Shown: piece after piece, positions 2,439-40,474 of the stretch
Layout of the letters: each line of letters opens with the position of its first letter
How positions within the stretch are numbered: position 1 is the first letter of the stretch
From: Rhodobacteraceae bacterium WFHF2C18
Lineage (GTDB): Bacteria; Pseudomonadota; Alphaproteobacteria; Rhodobacterales; Rhodobacteraceae
Length of the DNA stretch: 64,000 bases
Direction of reading: 5' to 3'
Assembly (NCBI GenBank): GCA_002166865.1
Contig: NHTQ01000001.1
Location: 248,001 to 312,000, forward strand
Notes under the pieces: generated by a model
Seen by the model: only the letters and a program-made list of their open reading frames with translations
Told to the model about the DNA's origin: nothing
Databases searched by the model: none
Translations under genes and position numbers: made by a program

Positions 2439-3782
2439 TCAGGCCAGCATGACCATCGGGTTCTCCAGGTTCTCGACGATGTGCTGCAGGACTTCCGCGC
2501 CGAGCGCACCGTCGATGACCCGATGGTCCACGCTGAGCGTGACCGACATCATCGTGGCGGTCGTCACCTCGCCATCCTCGCCCACGACGGGTTTCTTCAC
2601 GCCCGTGCCGACGGCCAGAATGGCGCCATGCGGCGGATTGATGACGGCATCGAAGTTCTCGATCCCGTACATGCCCAGGTTGGAGACGGCGAAGGTGCCG
2701 CCCTGATACTCGTCGGGGCTGAGCTTGCGGTCGCGGGCGCGGGTCGCCAGGTCCTTCATCTCGGCGGACAGCGCCGAAAGCGATTTCATCTCGGCGTCCC
2801 GCAGCACCGGGGTGAAAAGCCCCCCTTCGACAGCCACGGCCACCGCCACGTCCGAGGGCTTGAGCTGCAGGATCCGGTCGCCGGCCCAGACCGCGTTGGC
2901 CGCCGGCACCGATTGCAGGGCGAGCGCGCAGGCCTTGATGATGAAATCGTTGACCGACAGTTTCAGGCCGCGCGATTCCAGCTGCTTGTTGAGCTGGCTG
3001 CGGAAGGCCAGCAACGCATCCAGCCTGATCTCGCGGCGGAGGTAGAAATGCGGGATGGTCTGCTTGGCCTCGGTCAGGCGGGCGGCGACGGTCTTGCGCA
3101 TGCCGTCGAGCTTGACCTCCTCGTAACTGCGGTCCGCGTACATGGCGGCCACCGCCTCGGCCGAGGGGCCGGCGGGCGCGGCGGCAGCGGCGGGACGAGG
3201 CTCCGGCTCTGCGGCCGGAGCGGCGGCCGGCGCGGTCTCGGGCCTGGCGGCCTCGACATCGGCCTTCACGATCCGCCCGCGCGGCCCCGATCCGGAGATC
3301 CTGGTGAGGTCCAGCCCCTTTTCGGCGGCGATCCGGCGGGCCAGCGGCGAGGCGAAGACGCGTTCGCCGCTTTCGTCGGTGGGCGCGGCGGGCGCCTTTG
3401 TCGGCGCGGGTTCGGGCCCCGCGCCCCGGCCATAGCCCGGCGCCGGCGCCGTCGCCTCGGAAGCCTCGGCCGGGGCGGCCTCGGCGGAGGCCGCGCGCGG
3501 CTTGGGTTCGGCGGCAGTCTCGATGTCGGCGGCGTCCTCGCCCTCCTCCAGCAGGACGGCGATGGGGGTGTTGACCTTGACCCCCTCGGTGCCTTCGTCG
3601 ACGAGGATCTTGCCGACGGTGCCTTCGTCCACCGCCTCGAATTCCATGGTGGCCTTGTCGGTCTCGATCTCGGCCAGAAGATCGCCGGCGGTGACCGCGT
3701 CACCCTCCTTCACCAGCCACTTGGCCAGGGTGCCCTCCTCCATGGTGGGCGAGAGGGCGGGCATGAGAATTTCGGTGGGCAT
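2439..3782 (-). CDS. pdhC: Pyruvate dehydrogenase complex E2, dihydrolipoamide acetyltransferase
   Basis: A 447-residue E2 core of the pyruvate dehydrogenase complex, which transfers acetyl from lipoamide to CoA. One lipoyl domain (residues 1-80, with modified Lys43 in the DKATME motif) is followed by an Ala/Pro-rich linker. Next comes a peripheral subunit-binding domain near residues 143-180 ([17 protein letters not shown]). The catalytic domain ends with [14 protein letters not shown], whose His near residue 420 is the active-site base. It is the last gene of a pdhA-pdhB-x-pdhC operon, and its ATG overlaps the preceding stop by 1 nt (TGATG). The lipoyl coding region is about 94% identical in DNA to that of pdhB. 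Confidence 0.95.
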
Positions 3783-4036
3783 CAGTCAACCTCCTCGACA
3801 AGAACCCGGTTCCACGGCGCCTTGACCCAGCCGCCGTCGATCCGGGCCGTGTAGGCCGCAAGGATCTGGGCAAGATTCCCGCGCAGCCAGTTCAGCCGGT
3901 CCGCCTCGGTCGCTGCGCCGCCGACTTCGTCGTCGACGAAATCGCGCGGCACCACCAGGCGGAACCGATGGTCGCCCGAGGGGCGCTGCAGCACGTAGGC
4001 GTCGCGGGACGCGTCGAACTCGAATTCCTCGCTCAT
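3782..4036 (-). CDS. Conserved small protein inside the pdh operon, function unknown
   Basis: An 84-residue acidic, soluble protein with no signal peptide or membrane segment. I do not recognise a named domain with confidence. Visible features are a short N-terminal beta-like part ([28 protein letters not shown]) and a helical middle ([22 protein letters not shown]), ending [15 protein letters not shown]. Its ATG overlaps the pdhB stop by 4 nt and its stop overlaps the pdhC ATG by 1 nt, so it is translationally coupled to both E1-beta and E2. This makes a role with the pyruvate dehydrogenase complex plausible, but that is inference from position only. Confidence 0.8.
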
Positions 4037-5445
4037 CGGTACGTCACCTTTTTGACGGCTTCCAGCACCTCCTCGACCGAGGTCAGCGCCAGGCGCTCAA
4101 GATTGGCCGCATAGGGCATCGGCACGTCCTTGCCGGTGCAGTTGATGACCGGGGCGTCGAGGTAATCGAAGGCCTGCTCCATCAGCACGGCCGAGATGTG
4201 ATTGCCGATCGAGGCGACGGGGAAGCCCTCCTCGATGGTCACGCAGCGGTTGGTCTTCATCACGCTGGCGACCACGGTGTCGGTGTCCATGGGGCGCAGC
4301 GTGCGCAGGTCGATCACCTCGGCCTCCACGCCGTCCTCGGCCAGTTTCTCGGCCGCCTCCATGGCGTAGGTCATGCCGATGCCGAAACTCACAAGCGTGA
4401 CGTCACCGCCCTCGCGCCAGACGCGGGCCTTGCCGAAGGGCACCGTGAAGTCGTCCATCACGGGCACCTCGAAGCTCTTGCCGTAAAGGATCTCGTTTTC
4501 CAGGAAGATCACCGGGTTGGGGTCGCGCACCGCGGTCTTGAACAGGCCCTTGTAGTCGGAGGCCGAATAGGGCTGGACGACCTTGAGCCCGGGGACATGG
4601 GCATACCAGGCGGCGTAGTCCTGGCTGTGCTGGGCACCCACCCGGGCCGCGGCGCCGTTGGGGCCGCGGAACACCATCGGGCAGCCCATCTGCCCGCCGG
4701 ACATGTAAAGCGTCTTGGCCGCCGAGTTGATGATCTGGTCGATCGCCTGCATGGCGAAGTTCCAGGTCATGAACTCCACGATGGGCCGCAGCCCGCCGAA
4801 GGCCGCGCCCACGCCGATCCCGGCGAAGCCGTGTTCGGTGATCGGCGTGTCGATGATGCGTTTGGCGCCGAATTCGTCAAGCAAGCCCTGCGTGATCTTG
4901 TAGGCGCCTTCGTATTCGGCCACTTCCTCGCCCATCAGGAAAACGCTCTCGTCGCGGCGCAACTCCTCGGCAATGGCGGCATTGAGCGCCTCGCGCACGG
5001 TCTGCGACTTGGTCTCGGTGTCCTCGGGCCAGTCAAGTTCGACCGTGGGCCCGTCCCGTCCCGCACTTGATGCGGGACCTCCCTGCGCCTTTGCCGGGGC
5101 CTTGTCCGTGCCGGGCTCCGGCTCGGGGGCCGGAGCGGGCTCGGACGACGCGGCCTCGGCCGGGGCCGCCATGTCGTCGGTGTCGATCTCGGCGGCGTCC
5201 TCGCCTTCCTCCAGCAGGACGGCGATGGGGGTGTTGACCTTGACCCCCTCGGTGCCTTCGTCGACGAGGATCCTGCCGACGGTGCCTTCGTCCACCGCCT
5301 CGAATTCCATGGTGGCCTTGTCGGTCTCGATCTCGGCGATGATGTCGCCGGAGGAGACCGTGTCACCTTCCTTCACCAGCCACTTGGCCAGGGTGCCCTC
5401 CTCCATGGTGGGCGAGAGGGCGGGCATGAGTACTTGGGTGGGCAT
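4033..5445 (-). CDS. pdhB: Pyruvate dehydrogenase E1 component, beta subunit with N-terminal lipoyl domain
   Basis: A 470-residue protein. Residues 1-80 form a lipoyl domain (Lys43 in DKATME). An acidic Ala/Pro/Glu linker follows to about residue 140, then a transketolase-like E1-beta domain ([34 protein letters not shown] to the C-terminus). The lipoyl domain on E1-beta is an alphaproteobacterial trait; most bacteria carry it only on E2. With pdhA it forms the thiamine-diphosphate-dependent E1 that decarboxylates pyruvate and reductively acetylates lipoamide. The linker contains a perfect DNA palindrome (5058-5078) read as coding sequence. It lies 15 nt downstream of pdhA and overlaps the next gene by 4 nt. 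Confidence 0.95.
5058..5078. repeat. Perfect 8-bp inverted repeat inside the pdhB linker
   Basis: GTCCCGCA, five bases CTTGA, then TGCGGGAC. The element is read in frame within the disordered linker between the lipoyl and E1-beta domains. Short palindromes of this form (GTCCCGCATCAAGTGCGGGAC) are dispersed in many alphaproteobacterial genomes, as far as I recall, so it may be a copy of a small mobile palindromic element. I did not find a second copy in this window by eye. Confidence 0.6.
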
Positions 5446-5460: not shown

Positions 5461-6471
5461 TCAGGCGTTCTGCGGCGCCGCGTCGGCGTAGACGTCGGTC
5501 CAGAGTTCGGACTCGTCCGGTTCGGGGCTGTCCTTGGCGAACTCGGCCGCGTCGTTCACGATCTCCTTGATCTCCTTGTCGATGGCCTTGAGGTCGTCTT
5601 CGCTGGCGTGGTCGCCCTCCAGCAGCAATTCGCGGACGTTTTCGATCGCGTCCTTTTCCTCGCGCATCTTCTGGACCTCTTCGCGGGTCCGGTACTTGGC
5701 CGGGTCGGACATGGAATGCCCGCGATAGCGGTAGGTCTTGATCTCCAGGATGTAGGGCCCCTTGCCGGCGCGGCCGTGCTTGACCGCCTTCTCCCCGGCC
5801 TCCTTGACGGCGAGCACGTCCATGCCGTCCACCGCCTCGCCGGGGATACCGAAGGCCTCGCCGCGGGTGTAGAGATCGGGCGTTGAGGTCGAGCGCGTCT
5901 GCTCGGTGCCCATGGCGTACTTGTTGTTCTCGATGACGAAGACCACCGGCAGATCCCACAGGGCGGCCATGTTGAAGGTCTCGTAGACCTGGCCCTGGTT
6001 GGCGGCGCCGTCGCCGAAGTAGGTGAAGGTGACGCGGTCGGTCTCGTTGTACTTGTCGGCAAAGGCCAGCCCCGCCCCCAGCGGCACGTTGGCGCCGACG
6101 ATGCCGTGTCCGCCGTAGAAGTCCTTCTCGGTGGAGAACATGTGCATCGAGCCGCCCTTGCCGCGGGAATAGCCCCCCTCGCGGCCGGTCAGTTCGGCCA
6201 TGACACCCTTCGGGTCCATTCCGCAGGCCAGCATGTGGCCGTGGTCGCGGTAGGTGGTGATGCGCTTGTCGCCCTCCTCGGCAGCGGCTTCCAGGCCCAC
6301 CACGACTGCCTCCTGGCCGATGTAGAGGTGACAGAATCCGCCGATCAGGCCCATGCCGTAAAGCTGGCCGGCCTTTTCCTCGAATCGGCGTATCAGCAGC
6401 ATTTCCCGGTAGTATTTCTTGAGCTCTTCGGCGGAAATATTGGTTTTCTTTGTGCTTTTTCGGGCGGCCAT
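5461..6471 (-). CDS. pdhA: Pyruvate dehydrogenase E1 component, alpha subunit
   Basis: A 336-residue E1-alpha with the thiamine diphosphate binding motif beginning GDGAANQGQVYE and closing around ENNKYAMGT. Also present are the conserved GGSMHMFS and HGIVGANVPLGAGLAFA segments and the C-terminal YRYRGHSMSDPAKYRTREEV loop. Length and motifs are typical of alphaproteobacterial PDH E1-alpha. It is the first gene of the operon and is preceded by a perfect 10-bp inverted repeat (6496-6519), probably the regulatory site of the operon. The upstream neighbour, after 262 bp, is ftsB, an arrangement common in this order. Confidence 0.95.
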   Translation of the reverse strand: MAARKSTKKTNISAEELKKYYREMLLIRRFEEKAGQLYGMGLIGGFCHLYIGQEAVVVGLEAAAEEGDKRITTYRDHGHMLACGMDPKGVMAELTGREGGYSRGKGGSMHMFSTEKDFYGGHGIVGANVPLGAGLAFADKYNETDRVTFTYFGDGAANQGQVYETFNMAALWDLPVVFVIENNKYAMGTEQTRSTSTPDLYTRGEAFGIPGEAVDGMDVLAVKEAGEKAVKHGRAGKGPYILEIKTYRYRGHSMSDPAKYRTREEVQKMREEKDAIENVRELLLEGDHASEDDLKAIDKEIKEIVNDAAEFAKDSPEPDESELWTDVYADAAPQNA

Positions 6472-6495
6472 GGGTGCTGGGCTCCTCCGCTACGC

Positions 6496-6519
6496 AGATA
6501 GTTTAGCATTAAACTATCT
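6496..6519. promoter_or_regulatory. Perfect AT-rich palindrome upstream of pdhA
   Basis: AGATAGTTTA, four bases GCAT, then TAAACTATCT: a perfect 10-bp inverted repeat 24 bp before the pdhA ATG, in otherwise GC-rich DNA. Size, symmetry and position fit an operator for a dimeric repressor such as a MarR- or GntR-family protein. Which regulator binds cannot be read from the sequence. Confidence 0.7.
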
Positions 6520-6733
6520 CATACACCATTCTGCCCCACCTGACGAGGGTGAATTTGGCCGGGATCTTCGCGCCGGCGGCGTGGAGGCCCCGGCACGCGG
6601 CCGGGGCGGGGGGCGCCTGCAGCCGCGTCGGAGGTGGGTGACGGACGGAGCGCGAGCCGCTGCGACGCGACAAGGAGGCCGCCAAACCCGCCCGTTTTTC
6701 GGCACCGGCAGGCCCGGTTCGGCCCGGGCAGAT

Positions 6734-8801: not shown

Positions 8802-10139
8802 TCATTGCTCGCGGAAGGCGCGGCTCATGCTGTCGCGGATCGGTTTCACCAGGTATTCGAAAAACGTGCGTTCCTGGCTCTGGATCATCACCTCCGCCGG
8901 CATGCCCGGCACCGGCGCGAAGGAGGAGACCCGGCTGTATTCCTCCGACGTCACGTCGATGTGCGCGACATAGACCTCGCGGGCGATGCCGTCCGACGTG
9001 TCCGTGACGGCGTCGGCCGAAAGGTAACTGACCCGTCCGTCCAGCACGGGCGTCGTGCGCTGGTTGAGCGCCGAAAGCCGGACCGTCGCCGGCTGTCCCA
9101 CGCGAACGCTGTCGATATCGGTGCGCGGCACCAGGGTCTCGATCTGCAGGGGCGCGTCGGAGGGCAGGATCTCGGCGATCGGTTTGCCGCTCTCGATGAC
9201 CCCGCCGGGGCTGTGGTAATGCAGGCGCACGACCGTCCCGCTGACGGGGGCCTTGACCGAGGCGCGTGCCAGGATGTCCTTGGCCTTGCGCGCCTTCTCG
9301 CGGACTGAGTCCAGCTCGGCCTGGATCGATTGCAACTCGTCCAGCGCGGTTTCGCGCCGGTCCGAGGTCAGCTTGTCGATCTCGAGTAGGTACTTGGTCC
9401 GGGTCCGCTCGATCTCTCCCAGTTCGGCCTTCAGGCGGGCGATGTGGCCCTCCGTCTCCAGAACGGCCCGCCGCACCGCGTTGTATTCCGGCCGCCGGAT
9501 CAGCCCACCGTCGAGAAGTTCGGCCTTGTCGGCCAGTTCCTCGTCCAGGTTGGCGGCGCGCGCCTCGTAGGATTCCAGCTGTTCACGGTATCCGCCGGCG
9601 CGCACGCCGAGCAGCTCGATACCGTTTTCCAGGATCGCCAGCTCGTTCTCCTTAAGACGGCGGGCCGACTCGAAGGTCAGTTTCTGGTCGGAAATGATCT
9701 GTGCCAGTTCGGCGTTGTCCTGCGCCATCTCCACGAGGTGTTCGGGGAACACGATTTCCTCGCCATCCTGGTGCTGGGTGCGCACGCGGGCCTCCATCGC
9801 TTCCAGCCGGGCCTGGCGCAACTTGAGTTCGCGCAGGTCCGCGGTGGCAGCCGTTTCGTCGAGCTGCACGATGGCATCCCCCTTTTTTACGCGGTCGCCT
9901 TCCGCGACCAGGATCGCCTCGATGATCCCGCCTTCCAGGTGCTGGACGATCTTGTTGCGGCCCGTGGCCACGAAGGACCCCTGGGAAATCACGGCCGCTG
10001 CAAGGGGGGCCTGGAAGGCCCAGGTGCCGAACCCCCCGAAGGCGATGATGAACAGAAGGATTCCGAAGATCGCGTGCTTTCGGATCGAGCGCGGCACGTC
10101 ATGGTGCCACTCCATGACTTCGACGGTCTCGGTCATCAT
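8802..10139 (-). CDS. HlyD-family type I secretion periplasmic adaptor
   Basis: A 445-residue membrane fusion protein. One N-terminal transmembrane helix (about residues 24-42) is followed by a split biotinyl/lipoyl-like motif (GSFVATGRNKIVQHLEGGIIEAILVAEGDRVKKGDAIVQLD). A long coiled coil runs over residues 100-290, and the C-terminal beta barrel contains ASVKAPVSGTVVRLHYHSPGGVIESGKPIAEI. It resembles the PrtE/AprE and LapC adaptors. It overlaps the upstream ABC gene by a few bases (ATGATGA), so the two are translated together. It would link the inner-membrane ABC exporter to an outer-membrane TolC-type channel that is not encoded in this window. Confidence 0.93.
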   Translation of the reverse strand: MMTETVEVMEWHHDVPRSIRKHAIFGILLFIIAFGGFGTWAFQAPLAAAVISQGSFVATGRNKIVQHLEGGIIEAILVAEGDRVKKGDAIVQLDETAATADLRELKLRQARLEAMEARVRTQHQDGEEIVFPEHLVEMAQDNAELAQIISDQKLTFESARRLKENELAILENGIELLGVRAGGYREQLESYEARAANLDEELADKAELLDGGLIRRPEYNAVRRAVLETEGHIARLKAELGEIERTRTKYLLEIDKLTSDRRETALDELQSIQAELDSVREKARKAKDILARASVKAPVSGTVVRLHYHSPGGVIESGKPIAEILPSDAPLQIETLVPRTDIDSVRVGQPATVRLSALNQRTTPVLDGRVSYLSADAVTDTSDGIAREVYVAHIDVTSEEYSRVSSFAPVPGMPAEVMIQSQERTFFEYLVKPIRDSMSRAFREQ

Positions 10140-12415
10140 TCCTTCTCCCCGTTTTCGGGCGGCGAACCACTGGTGCCGCCGACGCCTTTCTGTCCGCTCT
10201 TGCGGAACTCCGCGAGGCGCTGGAGGACCTGGTTGCGCTCGCCCAGCATCGTGATGTTGCCCTCCGACAGCATCATGATCTTGTCCACGGCACTGAGAAG
10301 CGTGGGTTTCTGGGTGATCACCACGACGGTGATCTTGTTGTTCCTGGCGTGTTCGATGGCACGAGCCAGCGCCGCATCGCCGGCCGCGTCGAGGTTCGAG
10401 TTGGGTTCGTCCAGCACCAGCAGGCGCGGATCCCCGAAGAACGCCCGCGCCAGCGCGATCCGTTGTTTCTGGCCGCCGGACAGCGGCGAACCGTCGGCGG
10501 CGACCATCGTCTCGTAGCCTTGGGGCAACGAGGCGATCATGTCGTGCACATCCGCCAGCACGGCGGCGCGATGGATCTGCTCATCGGTGGCGTCGTCGCG
10601 CATCCGCGCGATGTTCTGCTTGATCGTGCCGGGAAACAGCTGAACGTCCTGGGGCAGATAGCCGATGTTCTCGCCCAACTGGCGCGGATCCCAGTTGCGC
10701 AGGTCCATCAGGTCCAGCCGCACGCTGCCGGAGGTGGGCATGATCGACCCGACCAGCATCTTGCCCAGCGTCGTCTTGCCCGCCCCCGAGTTGCCGATCA
10801 CGGCCAGCGTGTCGCCCGGGGACAGCGAAAAGCTGATGGCGTTGAGCACGACCTGCTTGGTCCCGCCGGGAACATACAGCAGGCGGTCGACATCCAGCCG
10901 GCCCTCCGGCTGCGGCAGGCGCAGCCGTTCGAACTGCAGGCCCGAACGGGTCAGCAGGTTGGCAATCCGCCCGTAGGCCGACCGCGACAACAGGAAGGCG
11001 TTCCACCCCTCGATGGCGCCCTCCACGGGGGCCAGGGCGCGGCCGGCGATGATCGACGCGGCGATGACCATGCCGCCTGTGATCTCGCCCAGAATGGCGA
11101 GGTAGGCCCCCCAGCCCAGCATCGCGACCTGGGTCAAGAGGCGCACCCCGCGCGACAGCGTCGCGGTAATCACGTTGCGGTCCTGCGCGCGCACCTGCGA
11201 CGTCAGCGACGCGGCCGTGTCGCGCCCCCAGATCGATACCGCCTCGGGGATCATCGCCAGCGCGTTGATGATCTGGCTGTTTCGCGTCATGGAATCCAGG
11301 TGCAGATTGGCGCGCGATTGCGACTGGTTGGCCTCGGCAAAGGGCCGGGCCGTCATCCGCTGGTTTATCATCGCCAGCACCAGCAGGGCGACCGAGGTGC
11401 CCACCACGATGAAGCCCAGGTGCGGGTGCACGAGGAAGATGGCGAGCATGAAAAGCGGCGCGAAAGGCACGTCGAGAAAAGCCAGGAGTGTGCCGGAGGT
11501 GATGAAGCTGCGCACCTGCTGGAGATCCCCAAGGGCCTGGTATTCGCGGCCGTTGGAATGCAACGAGGCATGGGCTGCCGCGCTGAGGATCGGTTCGCCG
11601 AGCCGCGCCGACACTTCGACCGCCGTGCGCATCAGCATGAACCGGCGGACAGCGTCGAAAACGGCCTGAAGGATCACGGCGCCCGCGATGATGATGGTCA
11701 GCATGATGAGCGTATCGACCGAGCGGCTGGTCAGTACCCGGTCCGCGATCTGGAAGAGGTAGATCGGGATGGCCAGCACCAGAACGTTGGTGGCGCAGGT
11801 CATGAGCATCACGAACCCCATGTTGCGGCGCACCGCGGCCAGGGCTTCCTTCAGGCTCTCCTGGAAATTCTGCGGCCCGAGGCGACGGTGGAACTGGGCG
11901 CCGCCGCCACCGCCGCCGCCATCGCCGCCGCCGCTGCCGCCGCTCGGCGGGGCCGGACTGCCGCTTTGCGGGCTTTTGGGCTTGGTATTGATGCGCCCCT
12001 CGAGGGCGGGCCCGCCCAGCCCCTTGACCATCGGGTCCATGCGCGCGCGCCCCTTGTCGAATGTGCGGCCATCCGCCGTCCGATCGCCGGTATCCGGCCG
12101 GGCGCGGCCCTCGCGGGGCCGTTTGCCACCGGAGCGGCCGGCATCATCGTCATGGCGGCACTCCGGCCCGTTCGCGGCGGCGCCGCTTTCCACGGCGCCG
12201 TGGCAGGACGCGCAGGTGTCGGATTTCGGCATCAGCCGCAGGATGTCATTCAGGCCGGCGGTCTTCTCGCCAGTGGGTCGGTCACGCTCCGCCCCGGTCT
12301 CCGTTGCATTTGCCTCTGCCAGCGAGGCCGTCGCACGGACCTGCCACTCCTGCATCTCCGGGGTTTCTCCACGGTCCGTGACCTCCGGGGTCCTGGAATT
12401 GCGAAAGTCCTTCAA
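10136..12415 (-). CDS. Type I secretion ABC transporter (permease-ATPase) with long disordered N-terminus
   Basis: A 759-residue exporter. The six-helix transmembrane domain begins near residue 195 (MGFVMLMTCATNVLVLAIPIYLFQIADRVLTS, the PrtD-type start). The nucleotide-binding domain carries Walker A (GNSGAGKTT, about residues 536-544), the signature LSGGQKQRIALARA and Walker B LLVLDEPNSNLD. It has no C39 peptidase domain. The first 190 residues are unusual: low complexity, with a CASCH motif (Cys68, Cys71, His72) and a Gly-rich tract before the membrane domain. The TTG start at 12415 has GGGAG 7 nt upstream. It lies 19 nt after the repeat-protein gene and overlaps hlyD, so it probably exports the products encoded upstream. 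Confidence 0.92.
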   Translation of the reverse strand: MKDFRNSRTPEVTDRGETPEMQEWQVRATASLAEANATETGAERDRPTGEKTAGLNDILRLMPKSDTCASCHGAVESGAAANGPECRHDDDAGRSGGKRPREGRARPDTGDRTADGRTFDKGRARMDPMVKGLGGPALEGRINTKPKSPQSGSPAPPSGGSGGGDGGGGGGGAQFHRRLGPQNFQESLKEALAAVRRNMGFVMLMTCATNVLVLAIPIYLFQIADRVLTSRSVDTLIMLTIIIAGAVILQAVFDAVRRFMLMRTAVEVSARLGEPILSAAAHASLHSNGREYQALGDLQQVRSFITSGTLLAFLDVPFAPLFMLAIFLVHPHLGFIVVGTSVALLVLAMINQRMTARPFAEANQSQSRANLHLDSMTRNSQIINALAMIPEAVSIWGRDTAASLTSQVRAQDRNVITATLSRGVRLLTQVAMLGWGAYLAILGEITGGMVIAASIIAGRALAPVEGAIEGWNAFLLSRSAYGRIANLLTRSGLQFERLRLPQPEGRLDVDRLLYVPGGTKQVVLNAISFSLSPGDTLAVIGNSGAGKTTLGKMLVGSIMPTSGSVRLDLMDLRNWDPRQLGENIGYLPQDVQLFPGTIKQNIARMRDDATDEQIHRAAVLADVHDMIASLPQGYETMVAADGSPLSGGQKQRIALARAFFGDPRLLVLDEPNSNLDAAGDAALARAIEHARNNKITVVVITQKPTLLSAVDKIMMLSEGNITMLGERNQVLQRLAEFRKSGQKGVGGTSGSPPENGEKE

Positions 12416-12434
12416 CGTGGGTCTCCCTTGCCTG

Positions 12435-14405
12435 TCACGCCAGCATCGTTTGCATCACGTCGGAATGGGCCGCGCCGTCGGCGGTGACCGAGGCGCCGGC
12501 CTCCTGTCCCGTTTCCGTGCGGGGCTGGCCGGCCGCCATGTCGTCACTGAGAAATGCCACGGCCTCTGTCGCCAGGGCCTTGTCGGTATCCTGCACCAGC
12601 GTCACGTTGGGTGGCGGCGCGTCCTCGGACACCAGGTTGGCCTGGTGGAGGACCGCGTCGGAATAGACAGACCCGCCGGCCATGACCACCGACTCGATCC
12701 CCGCATCGGTCAGCCCCGCGACGTTCACCGCGGCGTTACTGCCCGTCTCGGTCTGTTGCCCCGCGGCTCCTGGCGAGGTGCCGACCAGGTCGCCATCGGA
12801 CAGAACGTTGATCTGGGTGACCGAGTGCATCTTGATCAGGTCGCCGGTGATATGAAGCACGTTCAATCCCTCCGCCCCCTCGAACGCGGGATGCGACAGG
12901 AACCCCGAAAGGTTGGGCGCGTCCGGGTCGAACTTGTCCAGCACGTCGCGCAAGCCATCGGTCAGGCTCGTCAACTGGTCGCTGGCGGTGTGCGTGATCG
13001 AGGCCAGGTTCATCGCCGCGTTGCCCGAGGTTGCCGCGAGACCCTCCGCGGTGTCGTTGGACGGCGTCTGCCCGGAACCGGCTTGAACGCCCGTGGCGAG
13101 GACGTCCTCGTCGGCCAGCACGTTGGTCTGGGAGACGAGGTATTGCGTGGTCATGTCACCCTCGACGATGATGAGGTCGAAGGTCATCCCGCCCGAGAAG
13201 AGCGATTCGGCGTTGATCAGCTCGTTCTCGCCGGTCGAGATCCATGACTCCCACCCCGAAATGGACGTGCTCAGCGTGTCCTCGTCGCCGACGAAGTTGA
13301 TCTGCTCGGTCCAGCTGTAGTTGATGAGGTCGCCGGTCAGGGTCGTGACGTTCACGAAGGGCGTGTTGCCGGTCGTCGTGCCGAGGTCCGGGCCCTCCAC
13401 CACGCTCGGCCGGTCGGAAAACGCGGCCTGGTTGAGCATGGTGTTGTCGCTCTGCGCTTGCGCCGCGTCGTCGCGCATCACGTTGACCTGGCTGATCACG
13501 TCCAGGCTCACGACATCGCCGCGCACCGCGATCACCGGCGCGTCCACGCCGCTCGACACGGCCGAGACCTGGTTCTGGGCGAGGTTGCCGCCGGTCAGCA
13601 GCGTGTGCGGGGCGGCTTTGCTTCCGGCGGAGAAGTCATCGGGACCGTCCCGGTCCCGTTCGGGCAATTCAGGCAGCATCGATTGCCAGTCGGGCATCTC
13701 GGACGCCGACGCGCCGTTCACGGTGATCCCGTCGGCGTCGGCGCCCCGCGCGAAGGTGACATCCGCCGCCGGCAGCGCCTCGGCTGCCTCTTCTGAGGCC
13801 CGTGAGACCGCCCCCACGAGATCCCGCGCTTCCGCGGTGGTGGTGCCGGCGGGCGCCGCGAAGGGGGACAGGTCGAGCACCTGGAGCGCCTCGGCCTGCT
13901 GGGTCGCGTGAGCGGTCAATTGTTCCTGCAGGTTGGCCCAGGCGTTGGCCAGCGCGTCGGAGGTGTTCAGGCTGTCGCGGTCGAAGAGGATGTTCTGCTG
14001 GATCGTGAATTCGGCGACAGAGCCCGGCGCGAAAGAAAGCATCGGCGGTATCACGCCGCCCGGCGCGCCCGGATCCGGCAGGGCAACCGCCGCCGTGTCG
14101 GGCGGGACCGCGGCGTCCCCGACAGGTTGGGACGGTTGCGGCACGGGGCTTCTGTCGGGCGCCTGCAGGTCGGGATCGGCGAAGCGCGGGGCGTAGGCGT
14201 CGGCATCGTTCACGCGCGGGTCGTAGCCCTCGGGCCCGTAATCGGCTTCATGCTCTCGGGCCGCTGCGCGGATTTCTTCGAGTTTCTGTTCGTCGCGGCC
14301 GTGTTCGAAGCTTTCGTATTCCTGTCTTCCGCGGACGGCTTCGGTGATCAATTGGAACAGGCCGATGAAAAAGGCGATGGATTCTGTGATCTTGTCCAAG
14401 AACAT
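12435..14405 (-). CDS. Large acidic repeat protein, predicted type I secretion substrate
   Basis: A 656-residue protein that matches no named domain I know. The N-terminus (MFLDKITESIAFFIGLF) has an amphipathic or hydrophobic helix but no Sec signal peptide. About six divergent modules follow the pattern GD-x(5-9)-Q-x-N-[VIFL]-x(2)-[DE]-x-D. Examples are GDVVSLDVISQVNV, GDLINYSWTEQINF, GDMTTQYLVSQTNVLADED and GDLIKMHSVTQINVLSDGD. The composition is rich in Asp, Ala, Gly and Thr and lacks Cys. Absence of a signal peptide, acidity and position directly before the ABC-HlyD pair suggest export by that system. It is not a classical RTX protein, because no GGxGxDxUx nonapeptides are visible. Function unknown. 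Confidence 0.85.
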   Translation of the reverse strand: MFLDKITESIAFFIGLFQLITEAVRGRQEYESFEHGRDEQKLEEIRAAAREHEADYGPEGYDPRVNDADAYAPRFADPDLQAPDRSPVPQPSQPVGDAAVPPDTAAVALPDPGAPGGVIPPMLSFAPGSVAEFTIQQNILFDRDSLNTSDALANAWANLQEQLTAHATQQAEALQVLDLSPFAAPAGTTTAEARDLVGAVSRASEEAAEALPAADVTFARGADADGITVNGASASEMPDWQSMLPELPERDRDGPDDFSAGSKAAPHTLLTGGNLAQNQVSAVSSGVDAPVIAVRGDVVSLDVISQVNVMRDDAAQAQSDNTMLNQAAFSDRPSVVEGPDLGTTTGNTPFVNVTTLTGDLINYSWTEQINFVGDEDTLSTSISGWESWISTGENELINAESLFSGGMTFDLIIVEGDMTTQYLVSQTNVLADEDVLATGVQAGSGQTPSNDTAEGLAATSGNAAMNLASITHTASDQLTSLTDGLRDVLDKFDPDAPNLSGFLSHPAFEGAEGLNVLHITGDLIKMHSVTQINVLSDGDLVGTSPGAAGQQTETGSNAAVNVAGLTDAGIESVVMAGGSVYSDAVLHQANLVSEDAPPPNVTLVQDTDKALATEAVAFLSDDMAAGQPRTETGQEAGASVTADGAAHSDVMQTMLA

Positions 14406-14453
14406 GGCGCTAGTACTCCGTTCGCCTGGAGCGCCCAGGAGAGGCCAAGGGAG

Positions 14454-14478
14454 GCTCGCGCGGCCCTGCCGCGCGAGC
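14454..14478. promoter_or_regulatory. Perfect 11-bp stem-loop between the two predicted secreted-protein genes
   Basis: GCTCGCGCGGC, loop CCT, GCCGCGCGAGC. It lies in the 112-bp gap between the stop of the upstream gene (14518) and the start of the downstream one (14405). In the direction of these genes no U tract follows. It therefore looks like an mRNA-stabilising or partial-termination hairpin rather than a full terminator; a T-rich run is present only on the plus-strand side. Confidence 0.6.
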
Positions 14479-14517
14479 TGTTCTTTTTCGAAGCGTCAGA
14501 TTGCTCTGACCGAGCGG

Positions 14518-15924
14518 TCACGCCGTGGCGTCGTCCTCGCCGGTCATCGAGTAGTTGGACGTCAGGTTCTGGCCCACGGTGGTCATGTCGACCGTGTTGC
14601 CCAGGACGTTGGCGCCCATGGTGATCGACTGGTTGAACGCCGTGGTCTCCAGCATGGCATCCGCGGAGGCCGAGGAACTGCCGGTGACGAACCCGTCGTC
14701 GCCGTTGTGCGACCCCCAGACGCCGCCGTGGCCGCCGTCGCCGCCGGGACCGCCGTGCGAGTTGCCGGCCTCACCGCCGATAACCTCGAGGTTCGTATCG
14801 CCCACGCCGGTTTCGCCTCCGTGGGCCTTGCCCGAGCCCCCGGCGGTTTGCGTCATGCCACCGGTCTCACCGACGTTGCCCCCTTTGGCATCTGCCACCG
14901 CATCGTCCGTAATACCGATGCCACCGCCCTGCGCCGCCGAAGCGGCTGCCGCGATGGCCTGCGCGGCGTCGCCGCCTTCCAGGAAGTCCAGCAGACCCAG
15001 ATCAAACCCGTCTTCGGTAGCGATTGCATCCGCGTCCGCCTCGGACTTGGCGAGGCCGGCGCCAATAGCTGCGTTCAAGGCAGATCCGTCTGCCCCACCG
15101 CCTTCACCGCCTTCGAGGTGGCCGTCAGTAACGCCACCGTCACCCGACTCGGCGTTGCCGCTCGCCGCCTCGCCGCCGATGGCAGCGCCCAGCGCCTTGC
15201 CGCCGACCGACGCGGCGTCGCCGCCGCCGCTGCCGCTGCCGCCGTCCGATTCGATGCCTTCTTTCGCCCATGCGTTGCCGCCATTGGCATTGCCGTTCTG
15301 GTGGAAGCCGGAACCGCCGTTGGTGACATCGGGATCCTTCAGCGTGTCGTTGTCGACGAGCTTGTTGTTCATGATGTTGACGGTGCCAACATCATTGCCC
15401 TCGCCGGTCAGCGCGCCGTTGAGGAGGTCATCGACGTTGATGTCGTCGCCGACGTCGTAGTGCATGTCGCCGTCCGCCATCAGCACGTCACCGATCGCCG
15501 ACCCGCCGGAGACGTCGATGTCGGCGAAGTCGTCATCGGTCGGCACGTAGCCTTCCATGTCCAAATCCACGTCCACGTCCACGTCGGTGTCGGTGGTGTG
15601 GTGGCTCTCCGACGTGTTGTTGTTGGTGTTGGTGTCGCGGTTGGTGTTGGTGTTGGTGTTTTCGTCGGTGTCCTTGTTCGTATTGGTATTCCTGTTTCCG
15701 TTGGTATTGTCGTTCTCGCTGGCATTGCCGTTCAGGTTCAGGTTGCCGTTACCGTTCAGGTTCAGGCTTTCTTGGTGCTGACCTTGGTATTGGTCCTGCC
15801 ATTGATCCTGGTCCTGCCATTGATCCTGGTCCTGCGATTGCGATTGATCGTCGTTGTCCTCGTTGATGGTCACGGAATTGTCCTGGATCCATCCGTAACC
15901 GTTATGTTGGTTCTTGATAACCAT
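14518..15924 (-). CDS. Asn/Asp/Gly-rich low-complexity protein, predicted type I secretion substrate
   Basis: A 468-residue protein with three compositional zones. Residues 10-110 are Gln/Asp- then Asn/Thr-rich (repeats of QDQDQW, LNGNGN, NTNTN and TDTDVDVDVDLD). Residues 110-200 are acidic. Residues 200-440 are Gly/Ala-rich (GGSGSGGGDAASVGG, GGPGGDGGHGG). The C-terminus (NQSITMGANVLGNTVDMTTVGQNLTSNYSMTGEDDATA) is less biased and may hold an uncleaved secretion signal. There is no Sec signal peptide. The ATG at 15924 has AGAAGGAA 8 nt upstream, better than the longer frame from 15966. It is the first gene of the block that ends with the ABC-HlyD exporter. Function unknown; a surface-layer or matrix role is inference. 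Confidence 0.82.
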   Translation of the reverse strand: MVIKNQHNGYGWIQDNSVTINEDNDDQSQSQDQDQWQDQDQWQDQYQGQHQESLNLNGNGNLNLNGNASENDNTNGNRNTNTNKDTDENTNTNTNRDTNTNNNTSESHHTTDTDVDVDVDLDMEGYVPTDDDFADIDVSGGSAIGDVLMADGDMHYDVGDDINVDDLLNGALTGEGNDVGTVNIMNNKLVDNDTLKDPDVTNGGSGFHQNGNANGGNAWAKEGIESDGGSGSGGGDAASVGGKALGAAIGGEAASGNAESGDGGVTDGHLEGGEGGGADGSALNAAIGAGLAKSEADADAIATEDGFDLGLLDFLEGGDAAQAIAAAASAAQGGGIGITDDAVADAKGGNVGETGGMTQTAGGSGKAHGGETGVGDTNLEVIGGEAGNSHGGPGGDGGHGGVWGSHNGDDGFVTGSSSASADAMLETTAFNQSITMGANVLGNTVDMTTVGQNLTSNYSMTGEDDATA

Positions 15925-16187
15925 GGTAGAACTTCCTTCTCTTTCGAAGGCCCGTTCGACCGCCACTCTTGTTTAAGGCGGACATGATTCGGGCCGTTGG
16001 TTTTGGCCGGGCGATTGCACCCGGCCGGTGAGCCGGCCAGGCCGATCCGTCGGGGTCCGGGACCTGGCCGGGCGCCTTGGGACAAGCGCGGACTTCAGGA
16101 TGAGGCCAGAAGGCGATCGAAAATAGCTCCCAGAAAGATCAACAGAAGCCGGCGCGCGTAAGCCCATGACAAGACCAGAAAAAACCG

Positions 16188-17486: not shown

Positions 17487-17983
17487 TGGCAGACACGCTC
17501 GACCAGCGTTTCTCGGACTTGCTGGGGCTGGTGGGGCGGTTGAACTATACTTGGACGAACACCGAAAGCCTGCTGATTCACCTCATTGCCGGCCTCGCGC
17601 GGACCGACACCGAAACGGCGCTGGTGATCTTTCTGACGCTCAACACCACGCGCGCCCGCGTCGAACTGGTGAAACGGCTTGCCAAGCTCGAACGCGCCGA
17701 GCCGGAGCTGCGCAGCCGCATCCTGACGGCCATGCGCGACATGATGCGTCACTCCGCGCTGCGGAACAGGTACAATCACTGCATATATTCCTTCGACCAG
17801 GACTCCGGCACCGCACGGACCATCCTGATGCGCATCGCCGACCGGCAGGACGAACTGAAGATCGGCCAGATGTCGGATATCGACGACCGGGCCATCGCCC
17901 AGATCGAAGAGGCGATCGCGAAGCTGGACGAGGCCAACCGCACCATTTGGCAGATCGTTCTCGATTACGACTTTCCCACGTGA
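17486..17983 (+). CDS. Small helical protein with HEPN-like R-x4-H motif
   Basis: A 165-residue, probably all-helical soluble protein whose ATG overlaps the LuxR-type stop codon, so it is translationally coupled to the regulator. I do not recognise a named family. It contains RNRYNH (Arg93 to His98), which fits the R-x4-6-H motif, with a polar residue after Arg, of HEPN domains found in many RNases and in toxin or defence proteins. An amphipathic N-terminal helix (RFSDLLGLVGRLNYTWTNTESLLIHLIAGLA) fits a HEPN-type four-helix bundle. Catalytic RNase activity is not shown; many HEPN-like proteins are non-enzymatic. A role as a partner or modulator of the regulator is inference. Confidence 0.75.
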   Translation: MADTLDQRFSDLLGLVGRLNYTWTNTESLLIHLIAGLARTDTETALVIFLTLNTTRARVELVKRLAKLERAEPELRSRILTAMRDMMRHSALRNRYNHCIYSFDQDSGTARTILMRIADRQDELKIGQMSDIDDRAIAQIEEAIAKLDEANRTIWQIVLDYDFPT

Positions 17984-40420: not shown

Positions 40421-40443
40421 CCCGTCCGCTATCGCGAAAGAGA

Positions 40444-40474
40444 AACGCGGCGCAGCCCCTGCGCCGCGTTTTTT
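40444..40474 (+). terminator. Rho-independent terminator of lon
   Basis: AACGCGGCGCAG, loop CCC, CTGCGCCGCGTT, followed by TTTT. The perfect 12-bp stem with a T run starts 24 bp after the lon stop and is the clearest terminator in the window. Confidence 0.92.

What the first reader, a model, noticed from the sequence alone, without database searches (positions are those of the whole stretch)
6496..6519. Perfect 10-bp operator-like palindrome controlling the pdh operon
AGATAGTTTA-GCAT-TAAACTATCT is the strongest dyad in the first 15 kb and lies 24 bp before the pdhA ATG, overlapping the likely promoter or leader. Enterobacterial PdhR sites have a different form, so another regulator is likely.
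Basis: partly seen in the sequence, partly recalled or inferred. Interest (0 to 1): 0.5.

Follow-up and report, generated by a model that had tools for sequence, protein, structure and literature searches.

The report
Conserved control site for pyruvate dehydrogenase
A perfect DNA palindrome in front of the pyruvate dehydrogenase genes is a real control site conserved across a bacterial family, shared with two other pyruvate-related genes, and its presence tracks one unassigned MarR-type regulator gene that probably reads it.

Summary
The palindrome is real and lies 24 bp before pdhA. Its core, TAGTTTA-N4-TAAACTA, occurs three times in the genome at <=1 mismatch, none at two: before pdhA, lpdA (E3) and maeB (malic enzyme). 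Of 76 exact sites read across the family, 72 precede these genes. Upstream of pdhA, 101 of 111 family genomes examined keep it within 4 mismatches. Its variation fits a protein-bound DNA dyad, not an RNA hairpin. A conserved -10-like box abuts it, so repression at the core promoter is likely (inferred).

LacI and TetR candidates fail. One MarR-family gene tracks the site: in >=90% complete genomes both 90, site only 0, gene only 2, neither 7; a second MarR-family gene shows no link, an Lrp gene a weaker one. Binding is unproven, independent co-losses are few, and other regulator families were not screened.

Prior art: a 2015 R. sphaeroides network gave a GTT-N6-8-AAC motif at pdh and malic enzyme to LacI-type RSP_1663/CceR. 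My data argue that the N8 form has another, MarR-type reader.

The parts
6496..6519 (.). 24-bp operator-like palindrome, 10-bp arms around GCAT
   Evidence: the full dyad is unique in the genome
6499..6516 (.). conserved 18-bp core TAGTTTA-N4-TAAACTA
6518..6523 (-). putative -10 box TATGAG abutting the core (inferred)
   Evidence: conserved T-A-x-x-A-G-A block in 98 aligned upstream regions and in 45 PdhA regions
6541..6546 (-). putative -35 box TCGTCA, 17-bp spacer (inferred, weak)
   Evidence: conserved CTCGC-like block
6482..6488 (-). Shine-Dalgarno-like GGAGGAG between operator and pdhA start
   Evidence: read
5461..6471 (-). pdhA, pyruvate dehydrogenase E1 alpha
   Evidence: TIGR03182 513 bits, cut-off 394
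4033..5445 (-). pdhB, E1 beta with an N-terminal lipoyl-like stretch (named by eye)
   Evidence: translation; no family scan was run on it
2439..3782 (-). pdhC, E2 acetyltransferase (named by eye)
   Evidence: translation; no family scan was run on it

Best explanation
The palindrome is the operator of a small, dedicated pyruvate-node regulon of this Rhodobacteraceae-type family: pdhABC (here), lpdA (G000:C1:871954) and maeB (G000:C7:8150). A dimer of a MarR-family protein (G000:C6:358868-359308, 147 aa, beside ubiG) most likely binds the 18-bp core, which overlaps the start region of the promoter, and blocks transcription. A metabolite of the malate-pyruvate-acetyl-CoA node would release it, so that the three units are induced together. 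Shown: the site, its conservation, its three targets, its DNA-type variation, its place close to the start codon, and its co-occurrence with this MarR gene. Inferred: that this protein binds it, that it represses, and the kind of ligand.
For: Three sites in the own genome at <=1 mismatch, at pdhA, lpdA and maeB; 72 of 76 exact sites read in the family precede one of these three genes, and so do 18 of 18 sites read in named genomes, of 24 found. pdhA upstream footprint: 101 of 111 within 4 mismatches. Mismatch symmetry of a DNA dyad. A -10-like block abuts the core. MarR gene: mutual best matches in own genome, G136 and G090; co-occurrence in >=90% complete genomes 90 both, 0 site only, 2 gene only, 7 neither, Fisher p 2.4e-9; the PetP-like MarR control gives 89/1/9/0, p = 1. 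Near-invariant recognition helix and wing, MarR fold with DNA-bound MarR, MftR and FabT among its nearest solved structures. RedB of R. capsulatus represses maeB2, pdhB and lpdA1, all indirectly (PMC9603517, passages), as an intermediate regulator would explain.
Against: No binding or expression data. On the PdhA tree only 3 independent pairs rest on starred branches, and the sign test cannot reach significance. An Lrp-like control is also associated, more weakly (84/6/4/5, p 6.5e-4), so shared divergence of the site-less genomes contributes. G020 and G101 have the gene but no site by the mismatch rule. The MarR gene has no such site near it: one relaxed match in 80 loci. CRP/FNR, XRE, GntR, ArsR and IclR regulators were not screened. 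4 of 76 exact sites lie elsewhere.
Confidence: 0.62

Rival explanations
1. The site is read by the LacI-family regulator CceR (RSP_1663 of R. sphaeroides), for which GTT-N8-AAC would be a spacing variant of its GTT-N6-AAC site.
For: Imam et al. 2015 predicted RSP_1663 for malic enzyme, PdhAB and other genes through [A/G/T]GTT-N6-8-AAC[A/C/T] (PMC4344238, passages). MaeB is lower in a P. denitrificans cceR mutant (PMC11323563, passages).
Against: The own genome's only LacI has a 75% ortholog in site-less G048 but only about 26-27% relatives in site-bearing G136 and G090. At most three exact sites per genome, at pdhA, lpdA and maeB in 72 of 76 cases, not at the glycolytic targets named for RSP_1663. 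A LacI-adjacent dyad in G120 is a different, N6 form, GTTAGCGCTAAC. That the own LacI is the CceR ortholog was not tested.
Confidence: 0.13
2. The site is read by a regulator of another family that I did not screen (CRP/FNR, XRE, GntR, ArsR, IclR or other).
For: Only LacI, TetR and MarR families were searched for, plus one Lrp-like gene; the TTTA-N4-TAAA core would also suit other dimeric helix-turn-helix proteins.
Against: It would have to share the presence pattern that the MarR gene shows by coincidence.
Confidence: 0.2
3. The dyad works as an RNA hairpin in the pdhA leader.
For: It lies just upstream of the Shine-Dalgarno-like GGAGGAG and could form a 10-bp stem.
Against: Letters, not only pairing, are conserved. 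In 98 sense-strand sites, C-A breaks are about as common as U-G wobbles at pair 6/13 (14 and 16), and A-C exceeds G-U at pair 8/11 (56 and 7) and C-A exceeds U-G at pair 9/10 (18 and 8); pair 2/17 leans the other way (12 G-T, 5 A-C).
Confidence: 0.03

Closest known systems
Predicted RSP_1663 (CceR) regulon of R. sphaeroides, clusters 15 and 36 (Imam et al. 2015, PMC4344238; passages seen)
   Same: GTT-N6-8-AAC inverted repeat; malic enzyme and PdhAB among the predicted targets
   Different: There one LacI-family regulator for two spacer classes and many glycolytic and TCA genes; here only the N8 class, three targets, and a LacI reader contradicted by gene presence
PdhR of gamma-proteobacteria (GntR family)
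   Same: Dedicated control of pyruvate dehydrogenase genes; PMC5343134 (passages) says that in Enterobacteriales, Vibrionales and other lineages it solely controls aceEF-lpdA
   Different: Other protein family and other site shape (site shape recalled); here malic enzyme belongs to the set and the genes are in three separate places
MarR-family repressors with known DNA complexes (MarR, MftR, FabT)
   Same: Winged-helix fold of the candidate; dyad operator close to the promoter
   Different: No NCBIfam equivalog reaches its cut-off (best 27.1 bits against 230); targets here are central pyruvate metabolism
RedB (CRP/FNR family) of R. capsulatus
   Same: Changes expression of maeB2, pdhB and lpdA1 (PMC9603517, abstract and passages)
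   Different: These effects are indirect, and its motif is non-palindromic, 12 bp (PMC9603854, passages)

Membership tests
MarR family (candidate reader) | MarR-type winged-helix domain by profile | tested here: met
   MarR_2 40.8 bits, cut-off 27; MarR 30.1 bits, cut-off 24.6
MarR family (candidate reader) | MarR fold with recognition helix, wing and long flanking helices | tested here: met
   Model of the Roseovarius gahaiensis ortholog, pLDDT 91, pTM 0.79 (five models 91 to 55); nearest solved structures are MarR-family proteins
MarR family (candidate reader) | Binds a dyad operator as a dimer | not testable with these tools
   Only co-occurrence with the dyad is shown
MarR family (candidate reader) | Released or changed by a small ligand or oxidation | not testable with these tools
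   none
CceR/LacI operator | Ortholog of the own genome's LacI in the site-bearing genomes used as filters | tested here: not met
   No ortholog among the LacI matches of G136 and G090; a 75% ortholog in site-less G048
TetR operator | A TetR gene in the site-bearing genomes used as filters | tested here: not met
   0 TetR_N matches in G090, 97% complete
PdhR (GntR) operator | Odd-spaced GGT-N3-ACC dyad (recalled) | tested here: not met
   Aligned sites show GTT-N8-AAC with an even centre
PdhR (GntR) operator | A GntR-family PdhR ortholog in the genome | not tested
   no search was run

The most novel reading that the evidence does not exclude
A conserved but unassigned MarR-family protein is the dedicated regulator of pyruvate dehydrogenase, its E3 and malic enzyme in this Rhodobacteraceae-type family, a counterpart of PdhR from another protein family, and the published GTT-N6-8-AAC motif of RSP_1663/CceR merges the sites of two unrelated regulators.
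Probability: 0.58. Interest if true: 0.62.

Novelty: new member of a known kind. Interest (0 to 1): 0.5.

Why it matters
In my searches (open papers only) I found no dedicated regulator for the flux from malate and pyruvate into acetyl-CoA in this family, which includes Ruegeria, Roseovarius, Leisingera and Phaeobacter. A three-unit regulon with one named candidate is a compact, testable model, and it would split a published regulon prediction into two.

Tried and rejected
LacI as reader: the own genome's only LacI has no ortholog among the LacI matches of site-bearing G136 and G090 and has one in site-less G048. TetR: none in G090. PetP-like MarR (L229): lacking in site-bearing G090, present in all 9 site-less genomes that are >=90% complete. 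Lrp-like L247: lacking in 6 of 90 site-bearing complete genomes, so a worse fit. RedB: non-palindromic motif and indirect effects. A regulator next to the targets: ORFs around maeB (L084, L058, L032), around lpdA and pdhA (L088, L092) and around pdhA in the window were read by eye and none looked like one. A site at the MarR gene: one relaxed match in 80 loci, far from it. RNA hairpin: against it, mismatch symmetry.

Papers: ten searches. A search for the two half-sites held 145 papers; of the 20 listed titles none concerned this family. Passages were seen of PMC9603517 (also its abstract), PMC9603854, PMC11323563, PMC5507952, PMC5343134 and PMC4344238; the rest are listings only. The CceR/AkgR paper of 2015 is not held.

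In it I added that 2 of 380 genomes outside the family have the 20-bp form, with 3 of 385 for the reversed control, and that G540 seems to be the same genome as G128.

Full report
OBSERVATION. The window holds AGATAGTTTA-GCAT-TAAACTATCT at 6496-6519. pdhA is on the minus strand (5461-6471), so 24 bp separate the dyad from the ATG; GGAGGAG (6482-6488) lies between. In order-1 Markov copies of this 68% GC window, AT-rich perfect dyads with arms >=10 did not occur in 20 simulations. By arm length a GC-rich 11-bp dyad at 14454-14478 is longer, so 'strongest in the first 15 kb' is not exact.

REGULON. In the own genome (3.36 Mb, 12 contigs) the full dyad is unique. The 18-bp core has three places at <=1 mismatch and none at two: pdhA, C1:871954 and C7:8150. 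Three more places have three mismatches, where the reversed control has 10 in all up to three mismatches, so those are noise. The two further places lie just upstream of lpdA (dihydrolipoyl dehydrogenase, TIGR01350 557.7 bits, cut-off 408.8) and maeB (malic enzyme domains plus the start of a phosphotransacetylase domain). Of 149 genomes of the same family 69 have the exact core; the reversed control matches in one; no genome has more than three (whose list of places was cut). Of the 76 sites that were listed and read, own included, 36 precede PdhA, 25 MaeB and 11 Lpd, and 4 lie elsewhere (L008, L013, L036, L061). In ten named records the relaxed motif TNGTTYA-N4-TRAACNA occurs 1 to 4 times, 24 places in all; the 18 that were read all lie at PdhA, MaeB or Lpd (G540 has the same coordinates as G128 and seems to be the same genome; the reversed control matches in one of ten). 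In 385 genomes of the class the 20-bp form ATAGTTTA-N4-TAAACTAT occurs in 4 of the 5 genomes of this family and in 2 of 380 others, and the reversed control in 3 of 385, so outside the family it is at noise level.

FOOTPRINT. I aligned upstream regions for 111 of the 135 genomes that have PdhA at E<=1e-120. The set is those with loci at hand plus those lacking an exact site, so it is not random. Best core match: 0 mismatches 43, 1 27, 2 19, 3 9, 4 3, 5 or more 10. Over 98 of these (<=4 mismatches and 1-60 bp from the start; 13 left out) the letters GTT and AAC are nearly invariant (98 to 100% each), T6 and A13 vary to C and G, the centre is mostly CG, and the most frequent distance to the start is 27 bp (25 of 98). 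A T-A-x-x-A-G-A block abuts the core and a CTCGC-like block lies further up; in the window these read TATGAG (6518-6523) and TCGTCA (6541-6546), 17 bp apart. If this is the promoter, the operator covers the transcription start, the place of a repressor (inferred). For lpdA and maeB the upstream blocks are different or weak. In 98 sense-strand sites, breaks that RNA would not tolerate are about as common as wobbles or commoner (pair 6/13: 14 C-A, 16 T-G; pair 8/11: 56 A-C, 7 G-T; pair 9/10: 18 C-A, 8 T-G); pair 2/17 leans the other way (5 A-C, 12 G-T). This speaks for a DNA element.

WHICH REGULATOR. I used two reduced site-bearing genomes as filters: G136 (exact maeB site; one-mismatch pdhA site) and G090 (exact pdhA site). 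LacI: the own genome has one match; the LacI genes L201 of G136 and L199 of G090 are 26% and 27% identical to it, L209 of G090 fell below the 38% listing limit, whereas site-less G048 has a 75% ortholog. TetR: 0 in G090, 4 in G136. MarR: 27 matches in the own genome, 5 in G136, 2 in G090; one trio of mutual best matches of 147-148 aa, 47-57% identical. In the own genome it lies between ubiG and a carbon-nitrogen hydrolase gene; in G136 it is beside ubiG, in G090 beside the hydrolase.

CO-OCCURRENCE. Over 149 family genomes 128 have a match to the own MarR protein at E<=1e-15 and 21 do not (20 printed; the last, G127, by subtraction). I counted G008 as lacking it, because its only match is a 37% paralog, and G101 (49%) and G147 (a fragment at a contig edge) as having it. 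Against the pdhA sites (<=4 mismatches = site): all 111 genomes 97 both, 4 site only, 2 gene only, 8 neither, Fisher p 4.7e-8; in genomes >=90% complete, G136 added, 90/0/2/7, p 2.4e-9. The four 'site only' genomes (G033, G068, G078, G096) are 74-83% complete. The two 'gene only' genomes are G020, whose upstream region keeps GTTCA-N4-TGAAC, and G101, whose protein differs in recognition helix and wing and which has a degenerate dyad 179 bp upstream. Controls on the same genomes: PetP-like MarR 89/1/9/0, p = 1; Lrp-like 84/6/4/5, p = 6.5e-4 (nine of the 29 genomes lacking the Lrp-like gene were inferred by subtraction). So the link is not a general trait of the site-less genomes, though shared divergence contributes. 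Of 14 genomes without PdhA at E<=1e-120, 9 also lack the MarR gene.

INDEPENDENCE. On a PdhA tree of 70 rows (quick method, 3 of 67 inner branches starred) lack of the site needs 6 changes and lack of the gene 5. G109 next to the own genome, G029 next to G148 and G048 next to G079 lack both, while these neighbours have both. On starred branches there are 3 independent pairs; over random pairings the gene goes the same way in 2.8 on average (2.5 if G020 is called site-less) and never the other way; the sign test cannot reach 0.05 with so few (G033, G096, G078, G147 and G008 left out as incomplete; G020 counted as having a site in the first run). Suggestive, not proof.

THE CANDIDATE. MarR_2 40.8 bits, cut-off 27; no NCBIfam equivalog near its cut-off. 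AlphaFold model of the Roseovarius gahaiensis ortholog: pLDDT 91, pTM 0.79 (five models 91 to 55); nearest solved structures are MarR-family, among them DNA-bound MarR, MftR and FabT. In 38 orthologs the helix HVTRGAMTNTL and the wing H-RPDWDDARRK are nearly invariant. A ubiG motif lies on the opposite strand in 73 of 80 loci and a hydrolase motif on the same strand in 48 of 80.

PRIOR WORK. Imam et al. 2015 (PMC4344238, passages) predicted that LacI-type RSP_1663 regulates malic enzyme, PdhAB, Mdh, PckA, succinate dehydrogenase, Zwf and others through [A/G/T]GTT-N6-8-AAC[A/C/T], in two clusters that differ in spacer. The palindrome here is an N8 form, so a version of this motif at pdh and malic enzyme is already in print as a prediction. 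In G120 a perfect N6 dyad, GTTAGCGCTAAC, lies near a LacI gene (L194:1739), and a poorer one near the own LacI (L197:1695), which fits N6 as the LacI form (inferred). In P. denitrificans a cceR mutant has less MaeB (PMC11323563, passages). In R. capsulatus RedB represses maeB2, pdhB and lpdA1, all indirectly (PMC9603517, passages). I did not test whether R. sphaeroides, R. capsulatus or P. denitrificans carry these sites.

VERDICT. The site is real, conserved and regulatory in character (high confidence). A pdh-lpd-mae regulon is well supported by position. That the MarR protein reads it is the best single hypothesis (about 0.6). Repression and a pyruvate-node ligand are inference.

Noticed in passing
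8802-15966: HlyD-like and ABC-transporter-like genes (type I secretion, named by eye) beside long ORFs very rich in Asn, Asp and Gly.
   Followed up: no
40443-40471 and 14454-14478: Longer GC-rich perfect dyads (13- and 11-bp arms), perhaps terminators.
   Followed up: no
family genomes G017, G047, G054, G066, G071, G094, G102, G122, G127: 9 of 14 genomes without PdhA at E<=1e-120 also lack the MarR gene.
   Followed up: partly
L008:1501-1518, L013:1501-1518, L036:3001-3018, L061:3001-3018: Four exact cores that do not precede PdhA, MaeB or Lpd; L008 is near a threonine-dehydratase-like gene, the others beside unrelated ORFs.
   Followed up: partly
G539:C42:17462-17479 and 17605-17622 (record of Puniceibacterium sediminis): Two relaxed sites 143 bp apart, not read.
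   Followed up: no
L194:1739 and L197:1695: GTT-N6-AAC dyads near LacI genes, perfect in L194 and 10 of 14 in L197, perhaps sites of the LacI regulator itself.
   Followed up: partly
4033-5445 and 2439-3782: pdhB begins with a lipoyl-like stretch nearly identical to that of the E2 gene (read by eye).
   Followed up: no
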